Made by a program: the position numbers and the translations under genes
In this document: piece by piece, positions 830 to 36,123 of the stretch
Layout: each line of letters starts with the position of its first letter
Position numbering within the stretch: the stretch's first letter is position 1
Notes under the pieces: model-generated
Told to the model about the DNA's origin: nothing
The model's database searches: none
What the model saw: only the letters and a program-made list of their open reading frames with translations
Origin: Diprion similis
Taxonomy: Eukaryota; Arthropoda; Insecta; Hymenoptera; Diprionidae
DNA: 64,000 nt
NCBI RefSeq assembly: GCF_021155765.1
Contig: NC_060117.1
Span: forward strand, 5,918,001 to 5,982,000
Reading direction: 5' to 3'

Positions 830-3800
830 ATGCTTTTCTCAGGGCAATGCCCTTTTTCCTCAGCCATTTTAACTCTGGCTATTGCGACGGGAATCGTGGC
901 TTTCAATTTTGATAGCGAAAATTTTATTCTATACGAAGACGTAGTAGAGTCGAACTCGTCTCATCCAAGCTTTTTTGGGTTTTCTTTGGCACTCTGGAGT
1001 TCGGGGACAGAAAACTCGGATAAGTCGTGGATCTTTATTGGAGCGCCGAAAGCCAATTCGCCAAAATACCCGAAAGCAAATGAACCCGGAACGGTCTTCA
1101 AGTGTGAAATTGGCAAAAAATGCACTGAATGGAACTTCGAATACGAAACCTGGAAAAATTATACACCCGGAAACGGTTCTTGGCTGGGTGGTTCAATTGT
1201 CATCGAAAATCGAACAGATGCAAACGTTCTGGTATGTTGATGCGAAGAATTTGCTCAATTTAGTCAGTCCTGAGGGATTATTTGTTATGAATTTTTGTTT
1301 TTTGATACAACGTTATCAGTTTTGCAATTCGGTGTTCGCCACTCAGCGAAATATCTTCCAAATCAATCGGGATCTCTAAAACCTTTGAGATGGTTTAAAA
1401 TCTGGTAAATAATTCTGAATTTTAGTCAATTTTGATGAAAAAAAATCACGCAGTGGTATCCTTAGAATTCCATGAAATCTTTCACACCGTATGAAATTCC
1501 AAGGAACCTTCGAACAATACTTGAAATATTTGAAAATATTACTTCATCGGTTTGAATCCCTAACTTGAAACACCCAGAGAAAATTTTCTGATGAACAATG
1601 AACACGAATGATCCGATGTCGATGGTAAAATTTTTTTCACGCGTCGTGTATTAGAACTCACTGTCCATTTACTTCATTTTTCTAATGCAATACCTACCTC
1701 ACATTTTTGAGACTCAGTCAAGTAACCAAACATGAGCCTCAAAGAATTTAATAAATAATTGTATACCTAATTGATCCATGAAGACCCCATTACATCTGAA
1801 AATAGATTTACAACAATGAGAGACACGCAATTTTTTTGGTCTCCGATATTTATTCACCTTCCAAGGTTAAGATGGTTCTAGACGTATTTAGGCCAATCAA
1901 AAAATTGAGTTTTTATCATCAACGTTCTCAAGTTTTAAGAATTTCGCGCCCAAACAACTGCTACAATAAGCTCGAAAAAATAGAAATAAATCGGTATAAT
2001 TATAAATTTCAAAATCAGTCGACTTTAATCCAGAATCGTGAACGTTTGAAATTGATAAATCTGTATCCACTTGCGAGAAAAATGGTTGCTAGACTGAATA
2101 ATTCGCTTATAACTAAGACTTAGAAAGTATCTTTTTTTTTACTTCATATATTCGAAATAATACGTTATCTAATAAATCCATATATGGATTATAGTCAATT
2201 GCGGTCACCTTTAGGTGATGTAACCAAGCTAAATAAATCCTGCAGCATAGCTCTCTTCCAGACAGTGCAGTTTGTAGATTACAGCATGACTAAATATGCT
2301 TTGCAGATGTTTCCCTTAGATTGAAGAGAAAACGTTATTTAATCTACAACATATTTCGAACCGATAACTAAAAGTACTCTAATTACCTTTCGGAAAATTA
2401 TGAACAAGGTTATAATGATACGTAAACATTTAAAGTAAGTTCTGACCGATAACCATCGAGACAAAGTCTCCGTATAAATGCCGCAGTATGTTGAGTTGCC
2501 TACTGCTTAGGAGGACGAATATCGGTAAAACAGACCTACCGAGTCATTACCATTTTAGTCAAGTCCACTCAGATAATCACTTGAGCGTGACTTCGGAACG
2601 CAATCGTTAAACGTTTCAGCATAAGTTATAAACGACAAAACAACTGTCTGGCCAAATCCACCCACCTTGGCAATAAAGACAGTTTCAACTGACTCGCGAG
2701 GGCTTAAATCACCCTACTTACCGAGTTACTCGGCAGGTCTGTTTTACCGATATTTGTTCCCCTCACTGATAGGCAACCCAACATAGTGTGACATGTTATC
2801 GCGATAAATGGTCATTCAGTAAGTTTCATAAGTTAAACTCATTGTCAAAGCGTAAAGAAACATGTTGATTGTTACGTTTGTTGAAATTTCTAGAGGATTT
2901 AATTGCGCACTTGTAACTCGGTCGTTTAACATTGCAGGTATGTGCACCAAGGTGGCTGGATGGGAACACTGAAGATAAATTTTTCGTGATGAAAGGTATA
3001 TGTTATCAGTGCGCAGCTAAATTGGATAAACCGACTATAAACGAGAGTGTGATGAATCTTGGCACGTCGATATACGTTTCGGAAGGATTCGGATTTTCTG
3101 TTCATTTTTCCGACGATTCGGGGAGAAAAAATTACACCATCGGTAGCCCAGGATTCAATATTGGAAAAGGAAGACTGACAATAATGGATGACCAGTTTCA
3201 CAGACCAACATCCATCGTCAAATTCAAATATCCGTTGGAACAGTATTCATATCTTGGTTCGTAAAGTGATTGAATATGCAGAATTTTACCAACAATCGAA
3301 TGATGAATACGAAATCTAAATGTTGTTCGGACAAGAAAACGAACGTCTGTAATTTACTCATTTTTTCAACACAAGGTGCTCAGACTGGTAGAATACAACT
3401 AGTTTGTTTGTTATTTCAGGTTACGCAGTAACGACGGGTGACTATTTTCAGCAGGGAGTTCGCATTTATGCAACTGGTGCTCCAAGGAGCCAGTATCTTG
3501 ATGGTTCAGTTTTACTGATTGACAGGAGGTTCAGGGATGCTGTCGTTGGAGAACAGGCTGGGGAATATTACGGATACGCTTTGGCGTCCTGTGACGTCAA
3601 CGGGGATGGAAGAGACGAGCTGCTCGTCGGCGCACCACAATGGACCAGAGACGTGGACGAAGGAAGAGTTTACGTTCTTACGGGAAGCCCGGATGTGAGT
3701 CGAATGATGTTTGTGCGGTGCCTGGACTAGACGGAAGTCGATGATAGATGCTGACATTGTCCGATTAAATTTTCGCAGAGAACACTTATGGTTTTGAAGC

Positions 3801-6800
3801 GTTTAGAAGGAAAGACGCCACGCGGAAGATTCGGCTCGACAATCACCTGCCTTGGAGACGTCGACTTCGACGGATACGAAGACGTCGCCATTGGCGCTCC
3901 GTACGCCGGAAATGGGAAGGTTTTCGTATACCGTGGAAGCAGGACAGGACTGTCGAGCGAATATAGTCAAAAAATCTCAGCCCCCGAAAACACCAAAGGA
4001 TTTGGGATTTCGATTTCCGAACCAAGAGATGTCGACCACAACGGATATGCCGACATTGCGGTTGGCGCTTATTTGTCTGGACACGTAGCTTTGATCCGAT
4101 CGAAACGCGTTGTTACTACGAAAGTTACCCTGGCGAGCGACACGAGACAAATAACGCTTCAATCGAATCCCTCCAACTTTACAATAGAAGTTTGTTCCTC
4201 TTACGAGGGAAAATATGTGGAAACAAAACTGAGTGAGTATAAAATGACGTTACTTGGTATTCGTTTGAAAACGTATTCTCAAAGTGCAGCGTACACAGAG
4301 TGAAGTAATATTTCTAACAATGGATCTACCTGATACATGGTTTGTTTGAAAAAGCATTGACTGTTCAGTATCGAAAGATACGGCTTATATACTTTTAATA
4401 GCATTGAGTCGCGACACTTGGCAAAAATTGACATTATTCAACATTTTCTGAAAATCCATCTGTGAGTATCTCTGATCGTGTTTTCGGTAATGTTTATTAA
4501 TTATTCTCCAAAAATTGTTTCTACTTTTCTACCACGTACGGTTTACGGTTTACTCTGTTTGCGCGTTTGATCACATTCAATTCTACTGAAAATTGTCGGT
4601 CGTGGTCTGAGTCGTAGGCGCCGACTTTTATAAGACCCGAGGGTTGTTCTATAGTCGAAAAGACTATTAAGTGGAATCACACCCATCTACTTTTATAGCA
4701 CCGGTTTTTTAAAATTATCTGTTACTTTATACAAACTACGAAAGTCACAAGTATAAAACCATTCGTTAAAAATACTCAATACTTCGAAACATACTAAACA
4801 CAATGTACTTATAGTTCTGAAAATTGCTAAGGGCTGCTCGAGCACCTGGGCAACCCCGGAGTCGTCGCCGGTGATCCGAGTCATCAAAGGCTAATGATTT
4901 GACGAGTTCACTTTATTTTCTATCCGCAGGTGTGCAGACCGAATTGACGGTTGACGAAGTTTATCGAAGAGCAAAAGTTGTGACTGTTACGGAAAATAAA
5001 CCAAGACATATTTTCGTTCATACGCTTCGAAATTCAATACAAAACTGTACAACATTTTTAATCAATGTGGTGAGTACTTTTGATGTCAGGAGTGTAAGCG
5101 TTAAACGTTCACACGTATACATATTAATATAGCAGAGGACAGAAAATACTTTTTAAATCCATTCAAATGACAGTCAAAAATGTTTTCGACTAGGTTGAAA
5201 ATAATGTTAATATATTTGTCATACAATATATAAAAATCGAAATTTGGAGAAAAGTGAAAACATTAATGTAATAAATTTTCAGACGAAGTATGACAATAGT
5301 CATCAGGCCATAAAACTCTCTGTGACCCAGACTTTTAACGAAAATACTAAAAGCGGGATCCTGCGGATTGGAAAGCACGGGATACTTGGCGAAGATCTTT
5401 TCTGTCGCGATTGCGTCGTAACCGATCCCCTTCGCTCGACATTCCGAGCAGACTATGATGTAACATTGGCAGCTAAGTGCGGCCGTGATGGCCATACTTG
5501 CCGATCGAAGTTGGGAATTGGTCTGAAAACCGTTGACCAGTTTGTAATTGGTTCTCCGTCAGCCTTGACGTTGAATGTCGACGTGAACAACATCGGCGAG
5601 CCAGCATATCACGCGAAGGCAATGATCCGGATTCCAATTTCAATAACTGTCGTTGACAGTACCGGATGTACTTATAGAACGGCGACGGATAATTTCACGG
5701 AAATTACGTGTCAAATTGCAAATCCCTTGGGAACCAACGCAATGGTGAGTAACTACGATTAGATTTGTCCACGGAATATGTCTAATGAAATTGGAAGATG
5801 CGTTAAATAACGATGAGGGCTAAATTCTCCCAAATCGGATGATCCAGAAAGTCCATATCATTGGTATCGGAGATTATTTTTACGTGAAAAAAATGTTGCT
5901 GGTAAATCTAGATTGTTAATCGTACAACGCGTGTCCATTGTGACATGATTGACGTGAGTGTCGAATTATTCGCAGGAAACTAGAAGTATATACTTGGATC
6001 TGTCGAGAATTCCACGGGATACGGAAAGTCTTAACTTCACGGCAGAAGCAACAACTGAGAGCGACGATATTTCGGGGGGAGCTAATGCAACTCATTCGAT
6101 CGAGTGTAAAGTAGAAATTGATGTCGGCATTTCGCGGTAAGAACTGATATTGTAAACTATTCCCTGACTGTATATTCGTGTCAAAGAAGTGTCTTTAATT
6201 TTTAATGGTGCAGCTGCCACGGCATTCTCGATTCCTCAATTGTCTGAAATCGTTCGCTTGCAATTTTCGAATTCCAGAGCGTCAAACGAAGTAACATGCT
6301 TTTTATTACTTGCAGAAAAAGTACGATGGACACGATTGGGTTTGCTCGGACAGACCGAGTAAAGAATTTACCAAACAGATCGTTTGAACACACTTATCTG
6401 GTGAGGAACTACGGACGGACAGTAATTACGAAAATCGTACTCGCCGTATCTGTTCCGACGCATTGGATACATGATGACGAGAAAATTGAAGTCGTTAGAA
6501 TCAGCGAAGTACATGGTAAACTGGACAGAAATCAACTGATTTGTGAGAATGCGACAGAAAACGAAGCCACAACACCCGCCTCATCCAGCGTCGACGCAAC
6601 GACGATAACTGAGTGGCTGAATGAAGAATCTCCTTCAACGACCACCAAGTTTTCAGTTATCGAGGGCAAAGTGTTCAGCAGTTACCCCGATAACAGGACG
6701 ATATACGTCAATTCGACGAATCCTTCGTTCAAGTCGACAACAATAAACTGCGAGTTGGCGCCATTCCAAAGCACACAATCGGTAGCCGAAGTTACTTTCT

Positions 6801-7978
6801 CGTTCGAGTTAATGCTTTCCAAGTTTCCGCGTAAGTTTATACGATAATCCTCTATTTTGACTTACCCAAGTTTGTTACATGAATCTTTCTTTTTTTCTGC
6901 AGTATCGTCTTTAGCTATAATATAATCAGACTTCCGTATACATCGGCAAATAGTATTCAATTAACGTATCTTGATCATCAGCATCATTTTCATACGTCGT
7001 GAAAATATTACGAATAATTGTAACGAAACCTGGGTTACTGTGAGATCCAACGGAGCCGATGAAATTGCTCGTCTCGAAGTGTAAACGTGAGAGTTTCGCG
7101 TGATCTCGATATTTTTAAATTTCAGCCGAAGTCATCCAAGCGAAAGACATAATATTCTTCGTAACGAATGGCAGTATCGCGATTTCATCGCCCAACGTCA
7201 TCGATCGTCAAACTACTAACAATGCATCCGACGCAATGATGATTGGAACAGTGTTGACTGGAACCCAAATTGAACATCATGTAGCTCTATGGATCTTAGC
7301 CTTGGCAGTTTTTTTGGCTCTGTTACTTCTGATCTTGATCATATTTGGACTCTTCAAATTCGGCTTCTTCAAGAGAAGCAAGAAGATGGAACTTAAAGCG
7401 CTATTACAGGAACAAACCGATGTAAGTTGCTGTTACGGTAGTTTAAAATCATTCTTGGTTTTCCTGTACAGTACTTTAACCGCTACAATATTTTTTTCCG
7501 AATGCCACGCTGTTGTAGAACCGCCACAATCACATTTCTGTTTTTTCGACGAGTGTACAAAGTGCTGAAAATTAACGCAGCGACAAAAATACCTGTTTTT
7601 TCATCTTCTTTAACCGAAGAACCAGAATTGGGAGACATTCGTCAGTAATATACTCCGTTCTTTGTGAAATCTCTCATATTTGTTCTTATAAGTTATGTGC
7701 CTCCGAATTGACAAGTTCAATTTGTTGTGATTGATTTGAACCAAAAGCAGTAGAAAACAGAAAATAGTGAACAATTTCCACTCAGGAATTCCTTTGTCAG
7801 TTTTCAACCCCGTTGACATAAGAGTTCATTTCTTAGATAATTATAAATTTTGTCTTCAAATTCTGCAACACACATTTTTGGCTGTTTGAAAAACCGAATC
7901 ATTTTCTTTTACTTCCAGAAGTCTACAGAGAGTGCTGGTTCAACGAAAACACACAACACCGTAATGATCCGCCATTGA
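830..7978 (+). CDS. Integrin alpha subunit, alpha-PS type, copy 1 (10 exons)
   Basis: Exons: 830-1231, 2938-3256, 3420-3694, 3779-4232, 4930-5069, 5283-5744, 5976-6136, 6316-6830, 7126-7421, 7919-7978. They total 3084 bases and 1027 aa, with phases agreeing at every junction. The product is a single-pass adhesion receptor subunit that pairs with an integrin beta chain at the cell surface. Visible parts: an N-terminal hydrophobic signal segment; a seven-blade propeller with FG-GAP repeats and three calcium loops (DVNGDGRDE in exon 3, DVDFDGYED and DVDHNGYAD in exon 4); the VCAPRW motif at the exon 1/2 junction; thigh and calf domains with many N-glycosylation sites; a Ser/Thr-rich linker in exon 8; one membrane helix; and the GFFKR motif just inside the membrane. 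There is no inserted I domain. The tail ends KTHNTVMIRH. A poly(A) signal AATAAA lies near 8166. Rapidly evolving insect alpha-PS3/4/5-like members are the best family fit; the exact orthologue is uncertain. Confidence 0.93.
2483..2790. repeat. MITE-like element in intron 1 of integrin copy 1
   Basis: About 70-base terminal inverted repeats bound a 308-base non-coding segment. The left end has GTATGTTGAGTTGCC and later ATATCGGTAAAACAGACCT. The right end carries the complements AGGTCTGTTTTACCGATAT and GGCAACCCAACATA. No counterpart is seen in intron 1 of integrin copy 2, so it was probably inserted after the duplication. Confidence 0.75.
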
Positions 7979-8400
7979 GTGACTGGTACTCGTATTTCGA
8001 GCAAACTATTCTTTATATGATTATCGTCCGTGTATTCACATTGTAATGCATACGATGTAAATTCTGCGTTCACAAAATATTTCACGTATAGAAATTTATA
8101 ATTCAAACGTTTCCCTCAATAGACTTTAGTTTTAGAATTATATAGAAACGAAATCATTCATAAAAAATAAAATTAGCCTTGTTGCCGTGGAACGCACTGC
8201 AAATAATTACCAAAATCCATGTTAACAATTCTAAGAATGCGTCAGCAGATATTGTGACCTCGTCAACGGTATTTTCAACCCACGTTTCCACGAATAGTTC
8301 GATCGAAAACACACGTAAGTATATTATACATCATAAAATCTGCAACACTAATACCGTTAAATTTCGATAATGCAGAACTGTAAGAATTCAAGCAAAATCT
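7979..8400 (+). other. 3' flank of integrin copy 1, shared with copy 2
   Basis: This segment holds the 3' untranslated region and a stretch that resembles 17,800-18,200 downstream of copy 2, for example GTCAACGGT with similar flanks. It therefore marks the downstream limit of the tandem duplication. A short open frame (8179-8370) is not preserved in the second copy and I do not consider it coding. From 8400 to 8660 I see nothing. Confidence 0.5.
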
Positions 8401-8662
8401 GTGAAGAAAACCTGTCTCGACCCTATATACTATATAGTGTAGTTCAGCAAGGGATAAGAGAGTCAGAAATTCGCTAATCCTAGAACTGTGACGTCACCGA
8501 GCGACTGCTGAACGCTCGGTGATTCGCCAACCGCTTCTTATGAAAGCGCCACCACGGAGCGAGCCGCACTTCTCGTCCGACCACCGCCGAATTCAGACTA
8601 CCTAACCTAATTAAGAGACATTAGTGAGATGAGACCCTTGTTGGTTCAATCACTGGTTGAAG

Positions 8663-9482
8663 AGGGTATTCTGGTCTAGAAGCTTAAATTTTAGGCATTT
8701 TTCAAACCAGGATAAAAAACAAAAATGAAAAACATTTTCACTATACATTTTTTTATATAATTTTTATTGATATTTGAAGAATATATAACAAAAAAAAAAA
8801 ATTGAATAACCGTCGAATTACAGGCCGGTGAAGTAGGGGCTACAAAAAAACGGTGCTCTCTGGTTGACATGATTCCAACCCTTGTAGTGATCTAAAACAA
8901 AAAAACAAAAAAATCACAAAATGGCGTCGACATAGAAAAAAACATTTTTTTTCACCTTTCGAATTTTTTCAAAATACATAAAATTAAAATTTTCCAAAAT
9001 CCATAAGGCAGGAGCGATAGAGAGATATATAGAAAAGATTTTCATCAAATACCAAAGGAATCGGTAAGGTAGAACTTGAGATATCATGACAACCACCTCG
9101 AAAAAGTAGTTTTAAGAAAAACGCGTTTGAAGTTTGAGGAACAGTTCCAGTAGAATAACTCAGATAATAATATTTAATACTCACTTTGGATTAATCGGTG
9201 ATCTCAGATCCATACATTGGGCCTTCTTCTTTCTTATAAGCAATGTCTTGCGAAGTTCATTCTGCTAACCGAGCTGTTCTGCCTTCTTTTGAAACAGCAA
9301 AAGCTCGCAGTTCTTCAGAACGATCAATTCTAACTTCGTTACGTCTGTAAATCCGCTGTATCTCCGAAAATAATTCGAATTTTGAAACATCCGTTTAAGG
9401 GAATTTTTTTGAGGGTCTAAACTTTAAAAATATGCAAAAAAAAAACATCCATTTTTTCAAATCTCTAGACCAGAATACCCCC
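8663..9482. repeat. Non-coding element with terminal inverted repeats
   Basis: The left end GGGTATTCTGGTCTAGA is matched at the right end by TCTAGACCAGAATACCC, a near-perfect inverted repeat about 820 bases apart. The inside is AT-rich with A and T runs and no sizeable open frame. This suggests a non-autonomous DNA transposon between the two integrin genes. The transposase family cannot be named from the ends alone. Confidence 0.6.
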
Positions 9483-10817
9483 TGAAGTCAAATCCCTTCT
9501 TTTTCTTGACTGAAACTGCACCCAGTTCGTGCAATTTCTCCAAACAACTTGTTCGTTTATCACACTTGAACGCTCTTTGTGCATACCTTTCTTGAATTAT
9601 TGATACGTTGCATGTCTACTCACCTTTGAAAATACCCAATTTATGCCTAGATTTTTCGACACACTTCTGTAATACAAAAAGTGATTATTACTGTTTTCTA
9701 TTCACACTTGAACGGAAAGATCTGTTTAGCTACCAATAAAGCGGGGAGGAAAAAAACGTTTTACTTCCCTAGGGAGGAAAAACTGTGTGGATAGTTTTTT
9801 CGCACAGTTTTTACACCCTGGAAATCTTTTTCTCACAGTTTTCTTCCCCTGTGACCCACTAGGTATACAGTCACATCTATAGGTAGCAAAAATTTTCTTG
9901 ATTTTCCTTTATTTATTGTAATTGTTTTTCAAATATATCTATCTTTGATTTGATAACAAGTAGTATTAATATTTTCCGGTGTTTTCGCATTGCCGTAATA
10001 ATAAATAACAACAATAACAACAATAATAATAATGTAACTGCAAAAAAAATTTCGAATAGAGGTGCGGAGGAAAAATTGCGCGGAAAGATTGAATTTCACT
10101 TTTAAGAAACTATACATAACGTTTTACAATTAGAAAAATACTGCATAACGAGTACGAGTGTATTACGGTTAATATAGTTTGACCCCATTTCTATCACCTC
10201 GAGAGTAAAAAAAAAATCGTCATCACTTTTCAAAAACCTCGTCTTTCTTACCAGAAGAACATAATATTTCGAAGTTCACCGACAGATAACTCACACAGCA
10301 GAACTTACATCGAAAAAATTTTCAATTAAATCTTTTCATTCGTTATTATTGGAATGTAGAAATCTTCATTGTGATTAATCTTTCAAGGAATAACTCGGTG
10401 TTTCCTTATTCAGTGGAAACACCCTGTATGTGGTTTGGTGTAGATATACTGAAAACATCTGTACCTACCGACAGTGACTGACACGAGACACGACATCTGC
10501 ACACGTGATGATTTAGATGCAAAATATATGCGATTGTTTTATAATCGTTAGCAAAAGAATAAAAAAGAATCAATATATTCTATTAATTTCTGCATTCCCG
10601 GATATGACGTTCACAATTTCTCTGGAAAGTACCATTAAAGACAGTTCGTTCTAAAACATGATCCTTATTCCTGAACCACTATAACCACATATATATTGCG
10701 ATATAAGGAAGTGACTCATTGAGCTTATTATCAACCTCAAGTTAAAATGTCTTCTCGAATGCAGAAGTTTTTCAGTACTTAGCATCACATTCGTTTTTCA
10801 ATCATTGAAAGAGAACG
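9483..10817. other. Intergenic spacer upstream of integrin copy 2
   Basis: AT-rich spacer without a supportable gene. The last 60 bases, including ACTTAGCATCACAT just before the copy 2 start, match the sequence just before the copy 1 start. The duplicated unit therefore includes at least some 5' flank. Confidence 0.5.
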
Positions 10818-13800
10818 ATGTTTTCCTCGAGGCGAAGCCCTTTTTACATTGTCATCGTAATTTTCGCCCTTTCGCAGTCCGCTGCTGCTTTCAGTTTCGA
10901 CACCGGAAATTTAATTCTCTACGAAGACGCGACTGAAGTCCAGAACCCACTTCGATCTAGCTATTTTGGCTATTCTGTGGCACTCTGGAGCCCGCAGAGC
11001 AAACACTTGAATGAATCGTGCATTTTCATTGGAGCACCAAGAGCCAATTCAACGGGATACCCGAACGTTGCAGAACCCGGGACTGTCTTCAAGTGCGAAA
11101 TTGGCAAACGATGTAAGGAATGGATATTCAAACACGGGACGTTTAAACCTGGCAAGGGTACCTGGCTGGGCGGATCATTGATGACAGAAGACCGATCAGA
11201 TGCAAACGTTGTGGTATGTTGATGCGAAATATTTATTATTTATTAATCATAATTATTGTCAATTTAGTGCAGAATTACTGTACAAATGAGTTGTCACGTT
11301 GCGAAATCAGGATGCAAATTTTGCCTAACGATGTAAATTATCACTGTATTTAACTTGAATTTACTACAAAAAATTTATGAGAAATAAACAAAAAGGTGAT
11401 TTTAATTTATTAAATTGTGGAGTTAATTTATTCTATTTGTAAATTCAATACACAGTGAAAGTATGAAAGATGAAAAGAAAACTTCCAATAAAAATTCATG
11501 GAATCTTTGAGATGTTAAGAAAATTTTACACAAAATCTTACACTGATATCCTTAAAATCCAATGAAATTATTACGGTTACATTGAATGGCTTCGATTTCC
11601 GTGAATAAACCTCTCAAGTCACATGAAATTCGAGGAAATCTTTGCATCGCACTTGAAATCCTTGAAAATTGGACAAAATATTTTTGAATCCTGAAACCTC
11701 TAATACCCAGAACAAACGGTCAATTTTCAGCCCGAAATATTAAAAATTCTGCGTGTCACGATTTTTTTAGTAGAATAATTAAGTATACAATTCGCTTCCA
11801 TGATTTAATAACAAAATGGCTGAAGGACCAATTTTTTCAGCTAAGATAGTAATAATCCACTTTTTATATTCCATCATACAACTCACAGTTCCTCCGTACA
11901 GTAAGACTGTTTTGTCAAAGTTGCGGTTACAACTGCAGGATATGCGGTGATGCTTTCCAGCACCGATAATATATATATATATATATATATATATGGAGAA
12001 GGAAAAACCCCATCAAGCAATGAATTATTACTGCGTCAAAAAGAAGGAAAATATTTCATTACTTATTGTCAGCCATAGATTAAACAAACTAAGCTCAACT
12101 GTTCACAGCTTATTAGAATACATATTGCAATCGCATATTCGTGACTTGACTGTTTAATATTGCAGGTATGTGGACCAAGGTGGCTGGATGAAATCAATGC
12201 TATTAACCAAGCAGTCTTCAAAATGAAAGGCATTTGTTACGAGCGTGCAGCCAAAGAAAACAGTTTTACTCAGCATCAGCACATACTGGCTGCCAACGAG
12301 AGCCGCACCTACTATGACGAATTCGGGGTTTCTATTCACATTCCCGATCAAACTGAGAGAAAAGTTGTGATCGGTAGTCCAGGATGGAAATGGGGAATGG
12401 GAATACTGACAGAGATTCTACACGAGAATGGCAAAATTCGAATTATGTACCCCATGGAATTGGATATGCAGGGGTATTCTGCATATGCCGGTTCGTGTAA
12501 AACAATTGCCGGATACAGAATAGTCTAGAATCTGATTATACAGGTTATAGTCTGGTCAATTTAGACCAAAAAACAAGAGCAAGGTTACATAAATTCCCAA
12601 CAAGCTGAAAGTTGGTAAAAAAAAAAATGAGTTTTTCGCGATTTTCAGCAAAACTGTAAGTTTTATCATAAAATTACCTCAGACAAAAATTGTAGATCAT
12701 AAAATTATCTATAAAATATATATTAATAGTTTTTTTCCTAAGAGCCAACGTTTTCGAGATATAACGATTCAAAAATTTGTAAAAGATGTTGATGAGCAGC
12801 AACTGAGGTTGGAGGAAGACAAGCTAATTGAACTCATGCATATTATGACGATTACAACTTTTACAGCTTTTTGAATCGTTATATCTCGAAAACGGTGGCT
12901 CTTAGGCATAAAAGTACTAATATATATTTTAAAGATAATTTTATGATCTACAATTTTTGTCTGGAGTAATTTTATGATAAAACTTACCGTTTTGCTGAAA
13001 ATCGCGAAAAAATCATTTTTTTTTTACCTTTGACCATGAATAAAATTTTTTTCAAATACGGGAATAATGGGAAACTTTCGAATTTTATTTATAATTATGT
13101 TTTAAACAATTATACCAACTTTCAGCTCGTTGGGAATATATGTAACCTTGGATGTCTAAATTGACCGGACTTATTCGTTCAGTAGATATGCATCGTTACA
13201 AAATAACAATCCCATTTCAAATTGCAGGATACGCGGTAACATCGGGTTTCTATTTTAACCGCGGTAAACGCATTTTTCTAACTGGTGCACCAAGGAATGC
13301 AGAACTTCGTGGCTCAGTTTTATCATACAAATCAAGTCACATTACTTCAATCGGCTCGGGAGAGCAGGCTGGGGAATATTATGGATACGCTTTGGCGTCC
13401 TGCGACGTCAACGGGGACAAAACGGACGAGCTAATCGTCGGCGCACCTCAATGGACCAGACACGAAGGAATAGACGAAGGAAGAGTTTACGTTCTTAAGG
13501 GAAGCCTGGATGTGAGTCGAATGATGTTAGTGCGGTGCCTTGACTAGGCGGAAGCCGATGATAGATGCTGACAATGTCTGATTGAATTTTCGCAGAGAAC
13601 ATTTGAGGTTTTAAAACGTCTCGAAGGAAAGACGCCACTCGGAAGATTCGGCTCGACGATCACCTGCCTTGGAGACGTCGACTTCGACGGATACGAAGAC
13701 GTCGCCATTGGCGCTCCGTACGCCGGAAATGGAAAGGTTTTCATATACCGTGGAAGCAGGACAGGACTGTTGAGCGAATATAGTCAAAAAATCTCAGCCC

Positions 13801-16800
13801 CCGAAAACACGAGAGGATTTGGGTTTTCGATTTCCGAACCAAGAGATGTCGACCACAACGGATATGCCGATATTGCGGTTGGCGCTTATTTGTCAGGACA
13901 CGTAGCTTTGATCCGATCGAAACGCGTTGTTACTACGAAAGTTACCCTGACGAGCGACACGCGACAAATAACGCTGCAATCGAATCGCCCCAACTTTACA
14001 ATAAGAGTGTGTTCCTCTTACGTGGGAAAATATGTGGAAAAAGAACTGAGTGAGTATAAAATGAAGCTGCTTGGTATTCGTTTGAAAACGTATTCTCAAA
14101 GTGCAGCGTGCACAGAGTGAAGTAATATTTCTAACAATGGATCTACCTGATACATGGTTTGTTTGAAAAGCATTGACTGTTCAGTATCGAAAGATACGGC
14201 TTATATACTTTTAATAGCATTGAGTCGCGACACTTGGCAAAAATTGACATTATTCAACATTTTCTGAAAATCCATTTGTAAGTATTTCTGATCGTGTTTT
14301 CGGTAATGTTTATTCATTATTGTCCAAAAATTGTTTCTACTTTTCTACCACGTACGGTTTGCCGTGTACTCTGTTTGCGACTCTGATAACATTCAATTCA
14401 ACTGAAAATTATCGGTCGTTGTCTGAGTCGTAGGCGCTGACTTTTATAAAACCCGAGGGTTGTTCTATAGTTGAAAAGACTATGGAATGGGATCACCCAT
14501 CTACTTTTATAGCACCGGTTTTTTTAAATTATTTGTTACTGTATACAAACTACGAAAGTAACAAGTACAAAACCATTCGTTAAAAATACTCAATACTTCG
14601 AAACATACTAAACACAATGTACTTATAGTTCTGAAAATTGCTAAGGGCTGCTCGAGCGCCTGGGCAACCCCGGAGTCGTCGGCGGTGATCCGAGTCATCA
14701 AAGGCCAATAATTTTAAGAGTTTACTTTATTTTTTATCCGCAGGTGTGCAGAACGAATTGGCGGTAGACGAAGTTTATCGAAGAGCAGAAGTTGTGATTG
14801 GTACGGAAAATAAACCAAGACATATTTTCGTTCATACGCTGCGAAATTCAATACAAAACTGTACGGAATTTGTAATCAATGTGGTGAGTACTTTCGATGT
14901 CACGAATAATAAGCATAAAACGTTTGATCATATATTAATATAACAGGAGAAGGAAAATATTTTCTAATCCCATTCAAATGGCAGTCAAAAATATTTTTGA
15001 CTAGGTTGAAAATAGTGTTAATATATTTGTCATACAATATACAAAAATCGAAATTTGGAGAAAGGAGAAAACATTAATGTAATAAATTTTCAGACGAAGA
15101 ATGACAATAGTCATCAGGCCATAAAACTCTCTGTGACCCAGACTTTTAACGAAAATACTAAAAGCGGGATCCTGCGGATTGGAAAGCACGGGATACTTGG
15201 CGAAGATCTTTTCTGTCGCGATTGCGTCGTAACCGATCCCCTTCGCTCGACATTCCGAGCAGACTATGATGTAACATTGGCAGCTAAGTGCGGCCGTGAT
15301 GGCCATACTTGCCGATCAAAGTTGGGAATTGGTCTGAAAACCGTTGACCAGTTTGTAATTGGTTCTCCGTCAGCCTTGACGTTGAATGTCGACGTGAACA
15401 ACACCGGCGAGCCAGCATATCACGCGAAGGCAATGATCCGGATTCCAATTTCAATAACTGTCGTTGACAGTACCGGATGTACTTATAGAACGGCGACGGA
15501 TAATTTCACGGAAATTACGTGTCAAATTGCAAATCCCTTGGGAACCAACGCAATGGTGAGTAACTACGATTAGATTTGTCCACGGAATATGTCTAATGAA
15601 ATTGGAAGATGCATTAAATCATAATGTCAGCTAAATTCTCCCAAATCGAATGATTTAGAAAGTCCATATCATTCGTATCGGAGATTATTTTTACGTGAAA
15701 AAAATGTTGCTGGTGAATCTAGATTGTTAATCGTACAACGCGTGTCCATTGTGACATGATTGACGTGAGTGTCGAATTATTCGCAGGAAACTAGAAGTAT
15801 ATACTTGGATCTGTCGAGAATTCCACGGGATACGAAAAGTCTTAACTTCACGGCAGAAGCAACAACTGAGAGCGACGATATTTCGGGGAGAGCTAATGCA
15901 ACTCATTCGATCGAGTGTAAAGTAGAAATTGATGTCGGCATTTCGCGGTAAGAACTGATATTGTAAACTATTCCCTGACTGTATATTCGTGTCAAAGAAG
16001 TGTCTTCAATTTTTAATGGTGCAGCTGCCACGGCATTCTCGATTCCTCAATTGTCTGAAATCGTTCGCTTGCAATTTTCGAATTCCAGAGCGTCAAACGA
16101 AGTAACATGCTTTTTATTACTTGCAGAAAAAGTACAATGGACACGATCGGATTTGCTCGGACAGACCTGGTAGAAAATTTACCGAATAAATCGTTTGAAC
16201 ACACTTATCTGGTGAGGAACTACGGACGGACAGTAATTACGAAAATCGTACTCGCCGTATCTGTTCCGACGCATTGGATACATGATGACGAGAAAATTGA
16301 AGTCGTTAGAATCAGCGAAGTACATGGTAAACTGGACAGAAATCAACTGATTTGTGAGAATGCGACAGAAAACGAAGCCACAACACCCGCCTCATCCAGC
16401 GTCGACGCAACGACGATAACTGAGTGGCTGAATGAAGAATCTCCTTCAACGACCACCAAGTTTTCAGTTATCGAGGGCAAAGTGTTCAGCAGTTACCCCG
16501 ATAACAGGACGATATACGTCAATTCGACGAATCCTTCGTTCAAGTCGACAACAATAAACTGCGAGTTGGCGCCATTCCAAAGCACACAATCGGTAGCCGA
16601 AGTTACTTTCTCGTTCGAGTTAATGCTTTCCAAGTTTCCGCGTAAGTTTATACGATAATCCTCTATTTTGACTTACCCAAGTTTGTTACATGAATCTTTC
16701 TTTTTTTCTGCAGTATCGTCTTTAGCTATAATATAATCAGACTTCCGTATACATCGGCAAATAGTATTCAATTAACGTATCTTGATCATCAGCATCATTT

Positions 16801-17791
16801 TCATACGTCGTGAAAATATTACGAATAATTGTAACGAAAGCCGGGTTACTGTGAGATCCAACGGAGCCGATGAAATCGCTCGTCTCGAAGTGTAAACGTG
16901 AGAGTTTCGCGTGATCTCGATATTTTTAAATTTCAGCCGAAGTCATCCAAGCGAAAGACATAATATTCTTCGTAACGAATGGCAGTATCGCGATTTCATC
17001 GCCCAACGTCATCGATCGTCAAACTACTAACAATGCATCCGACGCAATGATGATTGGAACAGTGTTGACTGGAACCCAAATTGAACATCATGTAGCTCTA
17101 TGGATCTTAGCCTTGGCAGTTTTTTTGGCTCTGTTACTTCTGATCTTGATCATATTTGGACTCTTCAAATTCGGCTTCTTCAAGAGAAGCAAGAAGATGG
17201 AACTCAAAGCGCTATTACAGGAACAAACCGATGTAAGTTGCTGTTACGGTAGTTTAAAATCATTCTTGGTTTTCCTGTACAGTACTTTAACCGCTACAAT
17301 ATTTTTTTCCGAATGCCACGCCGTTGTAGAACCGCCACAATCACATTTCTGTTTTTTCGACGAGTGTACAAAGTGCTGAAAATCAACGCAGCGACAAAAA
17401 TACCTGTTTTCTCATCTTCTTTAACTGAAGAACCAGAATTGGGAGACATTCGTCAGTAATTTACTCCGTTCTTCGTGAAATCTCTTATCTTTGGTCGCAT
17501 AAGTTATGTACCTTTAAATTGACAAGTTCAATTTGTTGTGATTGATTTGAACCAAATTCAATGGAAAACAGAGAATAGTGAACAATTTCTACTCAGAAAT
17601 TCCTCGTTCAGTTTCCAACCCCGTTGACATAAGAGTTCATATCTCACGTCATTATACATTCTGTCTGAACTTGTACAAATCAGGTTTTTGGCTGTCCGAA
17701 CAACCGAATTGTTTTCTTCTGATTCCAGGAATCTACTGGAACTTCAGGTCCAGCCAATAATGCAATGGGACAATCGCCCGCCACTCAGTAA
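10818..17791 (+). CDS. Integrin alpha subunit, alpha-PS type, copy 2 (10 exons)
   Basis: Exons: 10818-11213, 12166-12490, 13228-13511, 13596-14049, 14744-14883, 15094-15555, 15787-15947, 16127-16641, 16937-17232, 17729-17791. They total 3096 bases and 1031 aa, all phases agreeing. The architecture equals copy 1: signal segment, FG-GAP propeller (DVNGDKTDE, DVDFDGYED and DVDHNGYAD loops), thigh, calf domains, one membrane helix and GFFKR. In exon 3 the loop reads DVNGDKTDE where copy 1 has DVNGDGRDE, so the usual Gly is lost. Exons 1-3 differ strongly from copy 1, exon 4 moderately. Exons 6-9 and their introns are almost identical to copy 1. The cytoplasmic end encoded by exon 10 (finishing MGQSPATQ) differs completely. 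Intron 2 carries a 0.6-kb foldback insertion. Both copies look functional. Confidence 0.93.
11968..11994. repeat. (TA)n microsatellite
   Basis: A run of about 13 TA dinucleotides in intron 1 of integrin copy 2. Similar shorter TA runs occur near 32,570 and 61,760. Confidence 0.9.
12551..13170. repeat. Foldback element in intron 2 of integrin copy 2
   Basis: The segment is a long imperfect palindrome. The left arm starts GTCTGGTCAATTTAGAC, then AAGGTTACAT and CAAGCTGAAAGTTGGTA. The right arm holds TACCAACTTTCAGCTCG, ATGTAACCTTGG and TCTAAATTGACCGGAC. Inner parts also pair (CGAGATATAACGATTCAAAA with TTTTGAATCGTTATATCTCG style matches). The arms are about 240-300 bases. The equivalent intron of copy 1 is only 163 bases long and lacks it, so it is an insertion after the duplication. 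Confidence 0.85.
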
Positions 17792-19122: not shown

Positions 19123-22100
19123 TTAGTCTTCGTCGTCGCCAAGACCAAGTCCACGAGAAATTTCTGCAGCCGTAAGCTTGGTGCCTCCGCCAGACGAAGG
19201 CGGATCTGCTTGACCTGAGGCGGGTCGAGTGCTGTGAGAATCATTTTGCATTCCATAGTTGACTGGGCCCTGTGAGTGGTTGTTATATCCTTGAGGTTTC
19301 TGCAAGTATATCAATGCCAATTTTAGGCTCAAGATACTTATGTTATTTCCATGCTAACAGCGTCAGGATCTCTTCAAGCAGGCGTAATTCATGAAGCCAC
19401 TCGAAGTTATTTTCTGTCTCTCATTAAAAAGTTTGCTTTGGAAGATTTCCTGTTTATTCAACCCTTTTAAACATCTTATTAGAGTTAATGCAATATACTT
19501 AAATCTAGTAAATTCTAAATATTATTGCGATAAGTAAGTTTTTTTGATTGTGATTATGCATACAGATTTTTACTGTATCGAACTATGAAATACAATATCT
19601 CATGCGAATCATGTTATACGTTCTTAGAAACATTAGTAAAACCACTGCAATGAAAGTGAGATATTGTTACAAATTTACCTCGCAATAGTTACATAATCAT
19701 TCATACAAAAAGTAAAACTTTTATACTTTTGACTGTTCTTTTAGAAGCTACTTACTAAAATTGACAATCTTGATTCGTTGCCATTGTGCAGTGTGACAAT
19801 ATAAACACAATTCTTTAAACCTATAATGCAAAGTAAATAAATTTCATAGTCACATAAATTTAAAGGGAAGTTTATCTGGGATAAAATTATCCGGACAACG
19901 TACAACATACTGCAGTCATTATACAATAGACGTATCGCATAAATTATTTAGTTTAAGTTTTAGTTTCTCGTTTCTTTTTTACTTACGTCCTTGCCATGCT
20001 TGCTTAGCCCATCTAGAGCAGAACTGAAGAGCGATGATCCAATGGCGGAACCGATTCCTGATAAAAGATTGGAACCATCAGAACCTTGATTCGAAGGGTA
20101 TCCACCCGATGGCTGATAATTGTATCCTCCGGAGGGCTGGTATCCAGGCTGATAACCTGGCTGGTAACTCGGTTGCTGATTTCCTCCTCCTCCTCCTCCG
20201 CCTCCAAGAACGCCGCCCAGAATCGAGCTCAAGGCTCCACCGAACGCGTCGCCTCCTCCGGATTGCTGTGGCGCATACGATGGCTGGTGCCCACCACCGC
20301 TGCCACCTCCACTGCCTGGATTTTTAATGTGAAATTACAGAGTCGTTTGAGAAAAGTAATGTATGAGAACCCTGGTGAAAAAACTTTCACAAGTTTCTTT
20401 AAAATATGCCACATTTTCGGAGTTCCGAAAAAAAATCTGTATTATTTTTTAGATATAATTCTGCATGGTAATTAAAAGATAACTATAAAATTTCTGTGCA
20501 TTACAACTGGTTTTTCGGAAAAACTGAGAAACTGTGAGAAAAAAACATTCTGCGAGTAGAGTTGCAGGAATTTATAAAAGTTTTTAAATACCATTCTTGC
20601 CACGGAATTGCGATACATTAAATTCTATCATCAGTTTCGTGAAGAATGAGATACAAGTCTACATTTTGTATGAAAGGATGATTCATACAACTCGCTCGCA
20701 CGGATTTGCTAGTAAAAATTATATATTCGTACCAAGTGCTCCTAAGATAGATCCCAGTACGCCACCGCCACCGCTATTGGAATCATGAGGAGGATAGCCG
20801 CTTTGGGGATAAGATCTATTGTCACCTTGTAAAGCACCAGAAGCCAGCGTGCTTGCCAGAGCGGTGCCAATGGAAGCCATATCAAAACCGCCAAAACCTC
20901 CTTCTGATTGCGTCTTGGAACCATCTGATTTCTCATGTTCTTGCTCTTGTTCCTTTTTTTTCTGAATCAATTTCATGCAATATTATTTAACGATACACAT
21001 GTTTTGCAAAAATGAATCTATACAGTTCAAGTGTATTCACCCCCCTTTCCAGATTCAAACTCACATTCATGGCATGCATAACTGCCGCAACACCACCAGC
21101 TGCAGCAAGTCCTCCAAGGGCAAGACCCACTTTGTCCAAACATCCTCCGAATGCTTCTTCTTCTTCAGGCTTTTCATAGCCCGGCTGATAGCCGTAAGCT
21201 CTCGGTGGATTGTATCCGCCGGATCCACCATAGGCATCCGGATGTGACCCATAATTACCGGGAGGCTGGTAACCGCCGCCCTGAGGTCCCACAGGATCCT
21301 GATTTTTCAAGGTTGGATACAAGCCTCCTGGACCTAAGAGTAAATTGTTTCTTAGAATAAAAACACTTGCAATATTGATGCCTTTTGATAGATCACATCC
21401 TTAAGAAAAATACATACCTGGTGGTCCAAAATCAGCTGCGGGAACGTCTGGCACGATTGGTGCCCTTGGTGCCTGTGGGGCGGCAGGAGTGCCGCTTTCG
21501 TATTTGATGGAATTGACTTCGACATCACCGTCGATGACCAAATGAGTTACTTTTTCATAGGGTAAACGATGGGCAAACTCTGTGAAGTGCCTGCCGTTGA
21601 TAGCGATCTTGTAACAAGGCTGCTCGCACAAAATAATTATCTCAAATTCTTGACCCGGTACCAGCCAAAGGGGTCCTTCGTTTTCTTCATTTCCCCAGCT
21701 CATCGACTCTATATGATTTCTGGTGACAAAACCTTCTGGGAATCGAGGCGATACATGAATGGCTATATCATCTCGGGGGTTTATATTCGGTCCTAGCTGG
21801 TAATTTATTGCAAAACGAACTGCTTGCGGCGGTATTTTTCCCTGGACTTTGACCATTTTGCCAGGAAATAGTCCACCCTCTACATCGCCAACGTAGGGAA
21901 TATCCTACAAAAGTATGAAGTTTTTTACTTCATTGTAAGATCATAAAGTGTTTATAGAGTGGTTTTAACTGATCGAAAACACTGTGCGATTTTTGTGTGT
22001 ATCTGACACAGTATATAGATAGACGGTTTTCTGATCTGGACGAATTCAAGGTGTTTCCTTAATTAAGGTCTGTGTTTCATTTTATTTTTAACATCAGGCA

Positions 22101-25893: not shown

Positions 25894-26704
25894 CTTTTGC
25901 TTTGAGACTGAAACAAAGGTAACGGCATAACACACTAAATCTTGTTTTATAATGAAGCTTATGTCGATACGTTTTCTTAGCATTTAGGTACAGTTGCATT
26001 AAGATCATATTTTGATTCAGCGAATATTTATTTATCATGTAGCGATGGAAGTGTAAAAAGTTTACTGTTATCATCTTGAATACCTGATACTTGTGTCAGC
26101 ATGAAATCTGACAAATTTGTAATCTGCTGTGCAGAAATTTAATTATCTTATATTCCTCAATGTAATGTAATTAGAAAATAGTCACTTGCAGTGTAGCAAG
26201 AAATGTATTAAAAGAATTCGGGAATATTATCTAAAGCTACTTCTGCTTATAGTTGATTACTACCGTTTGAATAACTACATTTTCCTTTTGCATGAAACTC
26301 GTGTTTCAACTCTGCAGACAGTTTTGAAACGAGTAAAGAATTTTGCATTCTGTTGTTGAAAATCCAGTGTCATCTCATGACACTGAAATTAGATAACAAA
26401 CTCCTTGCCTTTAATGTATTCATGCGTTACACGTGTTGTTGCGATGAAGAATAACCTTGACTTAATTTCCTTAGGCTGTTAAAAGAGGTAATCTATATCA
26501 CCTGCTTTCCTCTACTTGATGGATCGCTTAATACTGGCGTAAGATTTATGAAGAATAATACTGATTTGATAATTACGTATATTATCGAACTTGTATAAAA
26601 TCAGGATTGTAAGTTAACAGGAACAGTTTCACTATGAATTCATCAAAAAAGATTGCTCCATTTAGTCTCTTTTTATTTTGGCCAGTTGGTATTAGATACT
26701 GAAA
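25894..26704. other. Spacer between nitrobindin and UGT gene 1 (convergent)
   Basis: AT-rich, with no gene seen. On the minus strand an AATAAA-type signal lies about 30 bases beyond the UGT 1 stop codon (TTTATT on the plus strand near 26,673). Confidence 0.5.
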
Positions 26705-28794
26705 CTAGTCATTCTTTTTTGAGATCTTTTTGGGAGTAGATTTTCTACATAACAATCCGAATGTCTTGTGTATTAAAAATAACGTCAAGATCAGTAATAA
26801 CAAGATTGCACATCCTACATCCAGTAAAAAATACTGAATGAAATTTTGCTCAGTTACAGTTGCTTTGAGAAGCTTTGCGCCTCCGTTTTTGAGAACGTAT
26901 TCTACCCAATGTACAGCTGCATCCAATGGATGATTCATTTCACCCTTCCAGTAGGCAGATACCTGAAAATGAGAAAAGACAGTTTTTGAAATTGGTTAAA
27001 GGAAATGCATGGCCAAGCCTCGAATAGTTACGTGTTGCACATTAACCACCTTTTTCACATTATCTCGGTATTTTGGATTTGTTGCAACATTTATCACAGC
27101 GTTATAGACTTGGTCTTCTGTCATAGTTAGAAAATCCACAAACTCTGCGTATCCTTTCGACTCTGCAATCTTGATGTTACGCTTTTGATCTCCGAACAGT
27201 GGTATACCAACAATGGGTACTTCATGGTAAACCGTTTCCATTAAACTCGATATCCCGCCGTGCGTAACGAAGACTTTGAGATTGGGGTGTGCTAATAAGG
27301 CATGCCAATTTTCCATTAATAAGTGTTCACACTCAATCCTTGGTCATTCACGTCGTCAGTACACTTAACATATTGTTACTTACAGAGTATGTCATTCTGC
27401 GGAAGCCATTTTCCTATCCGAACATTTTTTGGCTTGTTCTCCATGGTGTCATTTTCCCATTTCCACAAAACGTTGTAAGGAAGTCTTTTGAAAGCTCCCT
27501 TTAGTACCTTTATCGTGTTGGCTGGCATAAGTATGCTTTGCATTGCCGAGCCCAAGCTAAACAGAATCACGCCGTTTTCCGAGGAGTCTATGTATTGTCG
27601 CAAGTCCTGCAAATAATGTTGAATCAAAAATGTTTCATCAACGCTTGTTTCAGTTTCCCGATAAGACTAGCTATCTTAAATAACCTACAGAAGGTAACGG
27701 TTTCGATGACTTCAAGTGCATTCCGGCGACGTTTTTCATATTTTCCATGTATGGCCGTGGGGTAGAAAATATGTGGTGAGAATTCAATAGAATGAAATCC
27801 GCTTGGCTCTCAATTTCTTCTAATGACGGAATCTCCTTCTCGGAGTCTGATAAATATTTATTCGCAAGTGCCTGTTGTTGGGGCATGTAGTAATATTTTC
27901 TGGTAATGTCAAAATATAAATTCGCGACGGTGTTGAGAAGTCTTTCGTAAAACGTCATTCTGTCTCCAAGTCTGAAATGTAGGGAAAAATAATAAGTCCA
28001 TATGCTTGATTAAGGTTTCATACTATTTACCGTCACCTTGTTGAACCTGATGTATGACTTTTCATCTCTGAACAACTGGCTAATAAGTAATCAATTGGAT
28101 GCCACTCTTTTATCTCAATTTACATTTCACCGTCGAACGTACATCACCAATGTGAAAAGAACTTACGGTAAAAATTCACTTGGCACGTAGCTGTATGGTG
28201 CTGAATTTCCAAAGATTCCATTGATTGTAGCCGTAGGTCCAAATGCGCTGATTAAAACCAAGGGACATTTAAATTTATGAACATAGGCGAGAAAGGCCTC
28301 GTTGAAGAATTGCTCCAAAATGATAATATCGAACTTTTCTTCAGACTTTATCAGAGCTTGAGCTTCAGTAGTATTCAAAGCCATTTCCGTCGTCATGGTT
28401 CCCATGTGATAAAGGAAAATATGTGCCAAGAAGATGTTCATATTTATATAAGTCGAGATATCTTCATGATCTTTAAAAAAGAATAGAGAATTATATATTT
28501 TCACTAATCCTACATGTTTCACGCTTTTACTCTTTACTTTTCAGTGAAAACCATTTTCTACTAACTGGATAAGGGAATGGAATCGTATGTGATCTCTTTG
28601 TAGTTCGACGCGTTGAAGCCGGTGTTAAACGGCACAAACACTGTAACGTCGTGTCCTTTTTTCGCAAGGGCATGCATCAGGGGTGAAGTTACCGAGAGAT
28701 GAGATCTTCCAGGGATAGGAAAAAGTCCCAAAATACGGGCACCTTCTCCCCGCCAGGCAAGGCAGAGAAGGAAGCATGTCGCGATAAGATTCAT
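26705..28794 (-). CDS. UDP-glycosyltransferase, gene 1 of the cluster
   Basis: Exons on minus: 28794-28566, 28470-28167, 27971-27689, 27606-27384, 27291-27050, 26962-26705. They total 1539 bases and 512 aa, phases consistent. The enzyme transfers a sugar from a UDP-sugar to small lipophilic substrates in the ER lumen, typical of insect detoxification and pigment or hormone handling. Visible: a signal peptide (MNLIATCFLLCLAW), then ARILGLFPIPGRSHLSV with the conserved SH; the donor-binding signature FVTHGGISSLMETVYHEVP through GDQKRN; WKWEN and IGKWLPQNDIL; a C-terminal membrane helix; and a KKND ending that fits the KKxx ER-retrieval signal. The start was chosen at MNL because a 3' splice site (TTTCAG) lies directly before it, implying a non-coding exon upstream. 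Confidence 0.93.
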
Positions 28795-28809
28795 CTGAAA
28801 ACCACACAT

Positions 28810-29085
28810 TATGTCGTTTCTTAGATCGGCTAGGATGATGTCAAGTTTCGATACTGGATTGACGGGCGTCTGGGTGGTGGAAAAAATTCTGCTGACTCAA
28901 GAAGCTCAATTCAAGGTTTAGACGTCTGAAAAAGTGACTTGAAGTTTGAGAATTCATTTCTCTGTTAGGAGGGGGGGTCAGGGTTTACACTTTCGAAAAA
29001 TCTATTTTTTTTTTTTGTCTCATCTTATTGTTAAACATTTCAAGAATATATTCTCAAAATTTTAAGTCTATCTGAGCAAAACTCT
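28810..29085. other. 5' flank of UGT gene 1
   Basis: Likely promoter or untranslated region of UGT 1, running into G-rich repeat sequence (GAGGGGGGGTCAGGGTTT near 28,970). No specific site can be named. Confidence 0.4.
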
Positions 29086-36110: not shown

Positions 36111-36123
36111 CTGAAAACCACAT

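What the first reader, a model, noticed from the sequence alone, without database searches (positions are those of the whole stretch)
5240..17380. Mosaic gene conversion between tandem integrin alpha genes
Exons 6-9 and their introns (about 5.24-7.57 kb versus 15.05-17.38 kb) are nearly identical, even in intron sequence. Exons 1-3 and intron 1 are highly diverged, and exon 4 is intermediate. Within the identical tract an island at about 6,325-6,385 (versus 16,136-16,196) has roughly ten differences in 60 bases and changes RVKNLPNR to LVENLPNK, while the remaining 440 bases of exon 8 encode identical protein. This on-off pattern is expected from repeated conversion tracts, not from one recent duplication. 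The effect is that the ligand-binding propeller diversifies while stalk and membrane parts stay homogenised.
Basis: partly seen in the sequence, partly recalled or inferred. Interest (0 to 1): 0.72.

Follow-up and report, generated by a model that had tools for sequence, protein, structure and literature searches.

The report
Patchy gene conversion between integrin twins
Two neighbouring insect integrin genes appear to have repeatedly copied sequence into each other in their downstream two-thirds while their upstream, ligand-facing part stayed different, a known kind of evolution (as in the immune receptors TLR1 and TLR6) seen here in a cell-adhesion receptor and again in a second integrin pair of the same genome.

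Summary
Two tandem integrin alpha genes (A 1008 aa, B 1011 aa over nine resolved exons; last tail exon unresolved) are a mosaic: NG86 dS is 0.82 in exons 1-3a, 0.12 from mid exon 3 to exon 5, and 0.028 in exons 6-9 (0.006 without the exon-8 island). Introns step too: 44-50% mismatch (1-2), 8.3 and 5.6% (3-4), 0.6-1.0% (7-8). A third, older tandem gene C is the control: A-C identity is 37% in exons 1-3 and 34% in the leg, A-B 53% and 97%. The tract has two edges inside longer homology and two islands of denser difference, one of them, in intron 6, unreported. Repeated, patchy gene conversion fits better than one duplication, one crossover or protein constraint. A second, unlinked integrin pair shows the same left-right mosaic, but so does a UGT pair in this window, so integrin-specific selection is not shown; dN/dS in the diverged part is 0.52. 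Blades 5-7 of the propeller lie in the converted part (blade numbers recalled). No related species could be compared. Closest precedents: TLR1/TLR6 and protocadherins. New member of a known kind.

The parts
830..1231 (+). gene A exon 1 (signal peptide by eye, first propeller blades); diverged part
   Evidence: open frame and splice sites; dS 0.77
2938..3256 (+). gene A exon 2 (equivalent of the ligand pocket by recalled alpha-V residues); most diverged
   Evidence: dS 1.02, dN 0.59, 39% amino-acid identity with B
3420..3694 (+). gene A exon 3 (blades 4 and 5, numbers recalled); contains the step at about 3548
3779..4232 (+). gene A exon 4 (blades 6-7, start of thigh); intermediate level
   Evidence: dS 0.107
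4930..5069 (+). gene A exon 5; intermediate level
   Evidence: dS 0.10
5283..5744 (+). gene A exon 6 (integrin Ig-like domain 2 by Pfam)
   Evidence: dS 0.009
5976..6136 (+). gene A exon 7
6316..6830 (+). gene A exon 8 (aligned to the leg of alpha-4; start of calf-2 as recalled)
   Evidence: no Pfam match of its frame
7126..7421 (+). gene A exon 9 (transmembrane helix and GFFKR)
   Evidence: amino acids identical in B
10818..11213 (+). gene B exon 1
12166..12490 (+). gene B exon 2
13228..13511 (+). gene B exon 3
13596..14049 (+). gene B exon 4
14744..14883 (+). gene B exon 5
15094..15555 (+). gene B exon 6
15787..15947 (+). gene B exon 7
16127..16641 (+). gene B exon 8
16937..17232 (+). gene B exon 9
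3548..5255 (.). older conversion level in A (partner about 13.36-15.07 kb): 7.5% mismatch; silent sites of exons and introns 3-4 6.9%
5256..7674 (.). youngest conversion level in A (partner about 15.07-17.49 kb): 1.6% mismatch with islands; silent sites 0.7% with both islands set aside
5802..5863 (.). island of denser difference in intron 6 (partner 15613-15674), 11 of 62
6325..6378 (.). island of denser difference in exon 8 (partner 16136-16189), 10 of 54
7675..8300 (.). 3' flank, 24% mismatch: homology goes on beyond the tract's right edge

Best explanation
A and B are old tandem duplicates. Since the duplication they have exchanged sequence non-reciprocally (interlocus gene conversion) at least twice: an older exchange or set of exchanges reaching left to mid exon 3, and a younger one covering intron 5 to about the last exon. 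Within the youngest tract conversion was patchy and left two short islands that still carry older differences. Exons 1-2 and half of exon 3, with introns 1-2, were not converted recently, so blades 1-4 of the ligand-binding head evolved separately. Shown: the steps, their presence in introns, edges on both sides, the islands, the control with gene C. Inferred: the recombination mechanism (conversion, not crossover), the number of events, that the islands are leftovers, and that the two heads bind different ligands. Why the 5' part escapes is open: selection against converting the head, or a passive barrier once introns 1-2 and exons 1-3a had become too different to pair (the fourth rival below, which shares this mechanism and competes only on the cause).
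For: dS by part: 0.82 (exons 1-3a), 0.124 (3570-5069), 0.028 (5283-7421), 0.0064 without the exon-8 island. Silent sites, synonymous plus introns: 65.5 of 949 (3570-5069, introns 3-4) against 7 of 958 (5283-7421, introns 6-8, both islands set aside); Fisher P 7e-14 on rounded counts; exons 1-3a 93.7 of 188 synonymous. With the islands left in, the youngest level is 25 of about 1035 by adding one search's counts. Introns 1, 2: 44%, 50% mismatch; 3, 4: 8.3%, 5.6%; 7, 8: 0.6%, 1.0%. Homology continues beyond the right edge at 24% mismatch to about 8300. Control: gene C (from C13:5906163, upstream of the window) against A: exons 1-3 119/318, exon 4 78/151, leg 173/512; A against B: 171/323, 137/151, 508/522. 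Searches of the genome, which score only the best candidates, listed A and B alone for the tract and for each island region. Replicate: integrin pair D1/D2 on C10: 28.8% mismatch up to L022:3645, then 1.2% to 5018, 10.3% to 6862, 22.8% to 8293.
Against: No orthologous locus of a related species was available, so paralog-closer-than-ortholog, the classic test, was not done. Direction of transfer is not known. GC3 gives little: 0.44/0.47 in exons 1-3 of A/B against 0.48 in exons 6-9, and gene C, with no such tract, rises from 0.41 to 0.50. The islands were picked after looking; the exon-8 island has 15 synonymous sites, and strict segmentation of the whole gene does not split the islands off.
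Confidence: 0.88

Rival explanations
1. Unequal crossing-over or a recent partial duplication replaced the 3' part of one gene in one step.
For: Tandem, same orientation, exon 6 to exon 6 about 9.8 kb apart; crossing-over in such arrays is established knowledge.
Against: The tract ends on both sides inside longer alignable homology (7.5% on the left, 24% on the right), there are several levels, and two islands of denser difference lie inside the youngest tract. A single crossover would be expected to carry the downstream flank along.
Confidence: 0.06
2. Assembly or polishing artefact: reads of one copy were laid on both.
For: No reads were available; polishing can homogenise near-identical copies.
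Against: Both copies lie inside a 16.0 Mb contig of a 60-contig, 269 Mb assembly; 4 of the 8 contig ends looked at are telomere repeat; the intermediate level and the islands are kept, and an unlinked pair shows the same kind of pattern.
Confidence: 0.04
3. Strong purifying selection on leg and tail alone.
For: Leg amino acids are 97% identical between A and B.
Against: Introns 7-8 and synonymous sites outside the island are about as identical as the protein, and between A and the older paralog C the leg is only 34% identical.
Confidence: 0.01
4. The same conversion, but the 5' part escapes only because it is too diverged (and has introns of different size, with a hairpin-like element in intron 2 of B) to pair; no selection for different heads.
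For: dN/dS 0.52 over exons 1-3a; a neighbouring UGT pair shows stepwise dS too, 0.35, 1.16, 0.11 in the three exon pieces tested; an imperfect 0.4 kb palindrome at 12618-13025 and size differences in introns 1-2.
Against: Two unlinked integrin pairs leave the same side unconverted (exons 1-2) and convert the same side; only two pairs, so weak.
Confidence: 0.5
5. The islands were not left over but came in from another locus or from multi-base mutation.
For: They are short and dense, and were defined after looking.
Against: The genome searches, one variant of each island, listed A and B only; in 86 kb of C13 no 12- to 14-base match for three of the four island variants and one 14-base match, at 26330, for the fourth; the exon-8 island is mostly synonymous (7 of 10), as old constrained divergence would be.
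Confidence: 0.12

Closest known systems
TLR1/TLR6 of mammals (PMC2077338; abstract and passages seen)
   Same: Tandem receptor paralogs; conversion keeps a membrane-side region alike (there LRR 16-19, C-terminal cap, transmembrane and most of TIR) while other domains differ.
   Different: There nine mammalian species show independent conversion with near-identical edges; here one genome and two pairs. Different protein family; here introns show the tracts as well.
Clustered protocadherins of fugu (PMC1852091; passages seen)
   Same: Regional conversion homogenises the 3' part of adhesion genes (EC4-EC6 of some genes), while EC1-EC3 stay diverse.
   Different: Large cluster of many genes; the GC3 rise used there as evidence is not informative here.
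Drosophila alphaPS3/alphaPS4/alphaPS5 integrins (review PMC9218073; passages seen)
   Same: Insect integrin alpha genes lying close together (the review puts the alphaPS4 start 259 bp after the alphaPS3 polyadenylation site).
   Different: No conversion is mentioned in the passages seen; orthology of A, B or C to these was not tested.

Membership tests
Integrin alpha subunit | FG-GAP repeats of the beta-propeller | tested here: met
   PF01839 above cut-off in the frames of A exons 3 and 4; two matches each in A, B and C in the genome search
Integrin alpha subunit | similarity to solved alpha chains over propeller, thigh and calf | tested here: met
   phmmer of A to integrin alpha-4, residues 13-804, E 1e-52; B not searched. 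Pfam alone finds nothing in the exon-8 frames and only a sub-cut-off SIT match in the exon-9 frame
Integrin alpha subunit | transmembrane helix with GFFKR (motif recalled) | tested here: met
   KFGFFKR in A and B, KLGFFKR in C
Interlocus gene conversion between paralogs | non-uniform silent divergence with sharp steps | tested here: met
Interlocus gene conversion between paralogs | tract edges on both sides inside longer homology | tested here: met
Interlocus gene conversion between paralogs | paralogs closer than orthologs in the tract across species | not testable with these tools
   the window's genome 'has no relatives here'
Interlocus gene conversion between paralogs | GC-biased rise of GC3 in the tract | tested here: inconclusive
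   small rise, also in gene C
Conversion with selected diversification of the ligand part (TLR1/TLR6 type) | positive or diversifying selection in the unconverted part | tested here: inconclusive
   pairwise dN/dS 0.52; a few 30-codon windows near 1, in the intermediate part as well as in exons 1-3

The most novel reading that the evidence does not exclude
In this insect lineage conversion repeatedly refreshes a shared integrin alpha leg under private heads, with the edge held near the start of propeller blade 4 or 5 by selection in at least two independent tandem pairs: a modular way to make new adhesion or immune specificities on one common signalling leg.
Probability: 0.22. Interest if true: 0.6.

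Novelty: new member of a known kind. Interest (0 to 1): 0.38.

Why it matters
It is a clean, layered example of conversion decoupling the two halves of a receptor, with introns, an older third paralog and a second unlinked pair as built-in controls. It warns that trees made from whole integrin alpha genes of such insects could mislead (the leg dates the last conversion, the head the duplication), and it gives a testable prediction on where conversion edges fall in other insect integrin clusters.

Tried and rejected
Constraint alone (fails on introns and on the A-C control). A third genomic donor for the tract or islands (none listed). Local template for the islands (one 14-base match only). 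GC3 as a conversion sign (not informative). Extra 5' exon copies between the genes: tblastn at E 0.01 gave none outside the exons of A, B and C in 86 kb of C13; on C10 there are 5'-like fragments between D1 and D2, not pursued. The last coding exon could not be settled: in the frame ending EEPELGDIRQ at 7648 the 3 differences from 7573 on are all synonymous (read by hand), but one further up, at 7511, changes an amino acid in that frame, and its phase does not fit the donor after 7421; the dS figures leave this exon out. Structure prediction and fold search were not used. One search stopped on a script error and was rerun, corrected. Paper searches for conversion in integrin genes, listings only: 15 of 73 listed; 2 of 2; 13 of 13; 12 of 102; 0; 0; 12 of 142; no listed title reports it; the library holds open-licence papers only. 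Searches looked for the protocadherin and TLR precedents.

Full report
What is there. The window is G000:C13:5918001-5982000 of an unnamed 269 Mb genome in 60 contigs. Four of eight contig ends looked at are TTAGG telomere repeat (L032, L035, L036, L037); that this is the usual insect telomere, and that such ends point to a long-read assembly, is recalled. Two integrin alpha genes lie head to tail. Gene A has nine resolved exons, 830 to 7421, and gene B nine, 10818 to 17232, with GT/AG sites at each resolved intron and one open frame each, 1008 and 1011 residues. Pfam finds FG-GAP repeats and an integrin Ig-like domain in frames of A, and nothing in the exon-8 frames; phmmer matches A to integrin alpha-4 over residues 13-804. 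Both have the GFFKR motif after the transmembrane helix. The last coding exon is unresolved.

The mosaic. NG86 dS/dN by exon: 1 0.77/0.31; 2 1.02/0.59; 3 0.42/0.26; 4 0.11/0.05; 5 0.10/0.08; 6 0.009/0.006; 7 0/0.016; 8 0.062/0.008 (0.72/0.06 in its first 22 codons, the island); 9 0.016/0. Introns: 1 44% and 2 50% mismatch (many gaps, so rough); 3 8.3%; 4 5.6%; 5 13% (18% in 5070-5204, 3.9% in 5205-5282); 6 5.2% (11 of its 12 differences in 5802-5863); 7 0.6%; 8 1.0%. Segmentation of 830-8300 gives 28.8% to 1272, 44.9% to 3547, 7.5% to 5255, 1.6% to 7674, 23.7% to 8300. In silent sites the two converted levels are 65.5/949 and 7/958, the second with both islands set aside (with them about 25/1035 by adding one search's counts), and exons 1-3a have 93.7/188. 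So at least two exchanges of different age are needed, perhaps three, since the 3' flank (7649-8300, distance 0.28) is also less diverged than the 5' part, or more constrained.

Is it more than chance. In 5283-7572 there are 33 mismatches in 2290 bases; the densest 62 bases hold 11, reached in 0 of 20000 shuffles; the longest identical run is 650 bases, P 0.0002 in 5000 shuffles. Segments within 5205-7572: 3, against 1 in 100 of 100 shuffles. On the whole gene the same strict rule does not split off the islands.

Control with gene C. Upstream of the window lies a third tandem gene, C, from C13:5906163. Amino-acid identity of A with C: exons 1-3 119/318 (37%), exon 4 78/151 (52%), leg exons 5-9 173/512 (34%). 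A with B: 171/323 (53%), 137/151 (91%), 508/522 (97%). Left alone, the leg diverges at least as much as the head; between A and B it is nearly frozen. That excludes constraint alone. The first codons of C's exon 8, before EETLYPYT, were dropped from this count because its acceptor was unclear.

Islands. The exon-8 island is 10 differences in 54 bases (6325-6378), the intron-6 island 11 in 62 (5802-5863). They look like stretches that the last conversion skipped. Genome searches with the intron-6 region of A and the exon-8 region of B listed only A and B. The dS of the coding island, 0.72 on 15 sites, is near the 0.82 of exons 1-3a, but the island was picked after looking.

A second pair. The FG-GAP search of the genome gave 12 matches, a lower bound by the tool's own words: two each in A, B and C on C13, one each in two genes on C10, two on C7 and two on C3. 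The C10 pair D1/D2 (L022, L023) is mosaic in the same direction: 28.8% mismatch before L022:3646, which lies 12 bases before the start of the GYSV exon (equivalent of exon 3), then 1.2% to 5018, 10.3% to 6862, 22.8% to 8293. In A/B the youngest part is the 3' end; in D1/D2 it is just after the edge. In both, exons 1-2 escaped. Full gene models of D1 and D2 were not made.

A counter-example to an integrin-only story. The UGT pair at 26.7-28.9 and 34.3-36.2 kb has dS 0.35, 1.16 and 0.11 in the three exon pieces tested (the remaining exons were not tested). Patchy conversion thus seems to affect other tandem genes here.

Function. By the alignments to alpha-V and alpha-4 the step in A/B falls at GEQAGEYYGYA, aligned to GEQMAAYFGFS of alpha-V, the start of blade 5 (blade numbers and the alpha-V pocket residues Asp150, Tyr178, Asp218 are recalled). 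Diverged: blades 1-4, with exon 2, which holds the pocket equivalent, lowest at 39% identity. Converted: blades 5-7, thigh, calf, transmembrane. A shared leg under private heads is thus what the sequence would encode. That the heads have different ligands is inference; pairwise dN/dS is 0.52, with a few 30-codon windows near 1, some of them in the intermediate part, so diversifying selection is not shown.

Compared with what is known. TLR1/TLR6 is the same kind of case: the abstract and passages of PMC2077338 state that independent conversions in nine mammals keep LRR 16-19, cap, transmembrane and most of TIR alike while other domains diversify. Fugu protocadherins likewise (PMC1852091, passages). 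I saw no listed title on conversion between integrin alpha genes (listings only, some of them partial, open-licence library). Hence: new member of a known kind, a good instance, modest surprise.

Noticed in passing
L022:1583-8300 and L023 (C10:17911583 to about 17928700): Second, unlinked tandem integrin alpha pair with a sharp 28.8% to 1.2% step just before the exon-3 equivalent, and 5'-like fragments lying between the two genes.
   Followed up: partly
26700-28900 and 34300-36200: UGT gene pair on the minus strand with stepwise dS (0.35, 1.16, 0.11 in three exon pieces), apparently a conversion mosaic too.
   Followed up: partly
12618-13025: About 0.4 kb imperfect palindrome (83.7% identical to its own reverse complement) in intron 2 of gene B, perhaps a hairpin transposable element.
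   Followed up: no
7422-7648: Last coding exon of A and B unresolved: in the frame ending EEPELGDIRQ the 3 differences from 7573 on are synonymous and divergence rises right after its stop, but its phase does not match the donor after 7421 and 7511 is a replacement in that frame.
   Followed up: partly
46225-49551: 1108-codon open frame, rich in Gln, Asp, Pro and Tyr, with near-identical repeats at 48925-49172.
   Followed up: no
21401-21904: Minus-strand frame with a galectin domain (PF00337); Gly/Tyr/Pro-rich minus-strand frames at 19960-21400 may belong to the same gene (by eye).
   Followed up: no
2938-3256: Exon 2 of A is less like C (19/99) than exon 2 of B is (32/105), Fisher P 0.08: perhaps faster change in A.
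   Followed up: no
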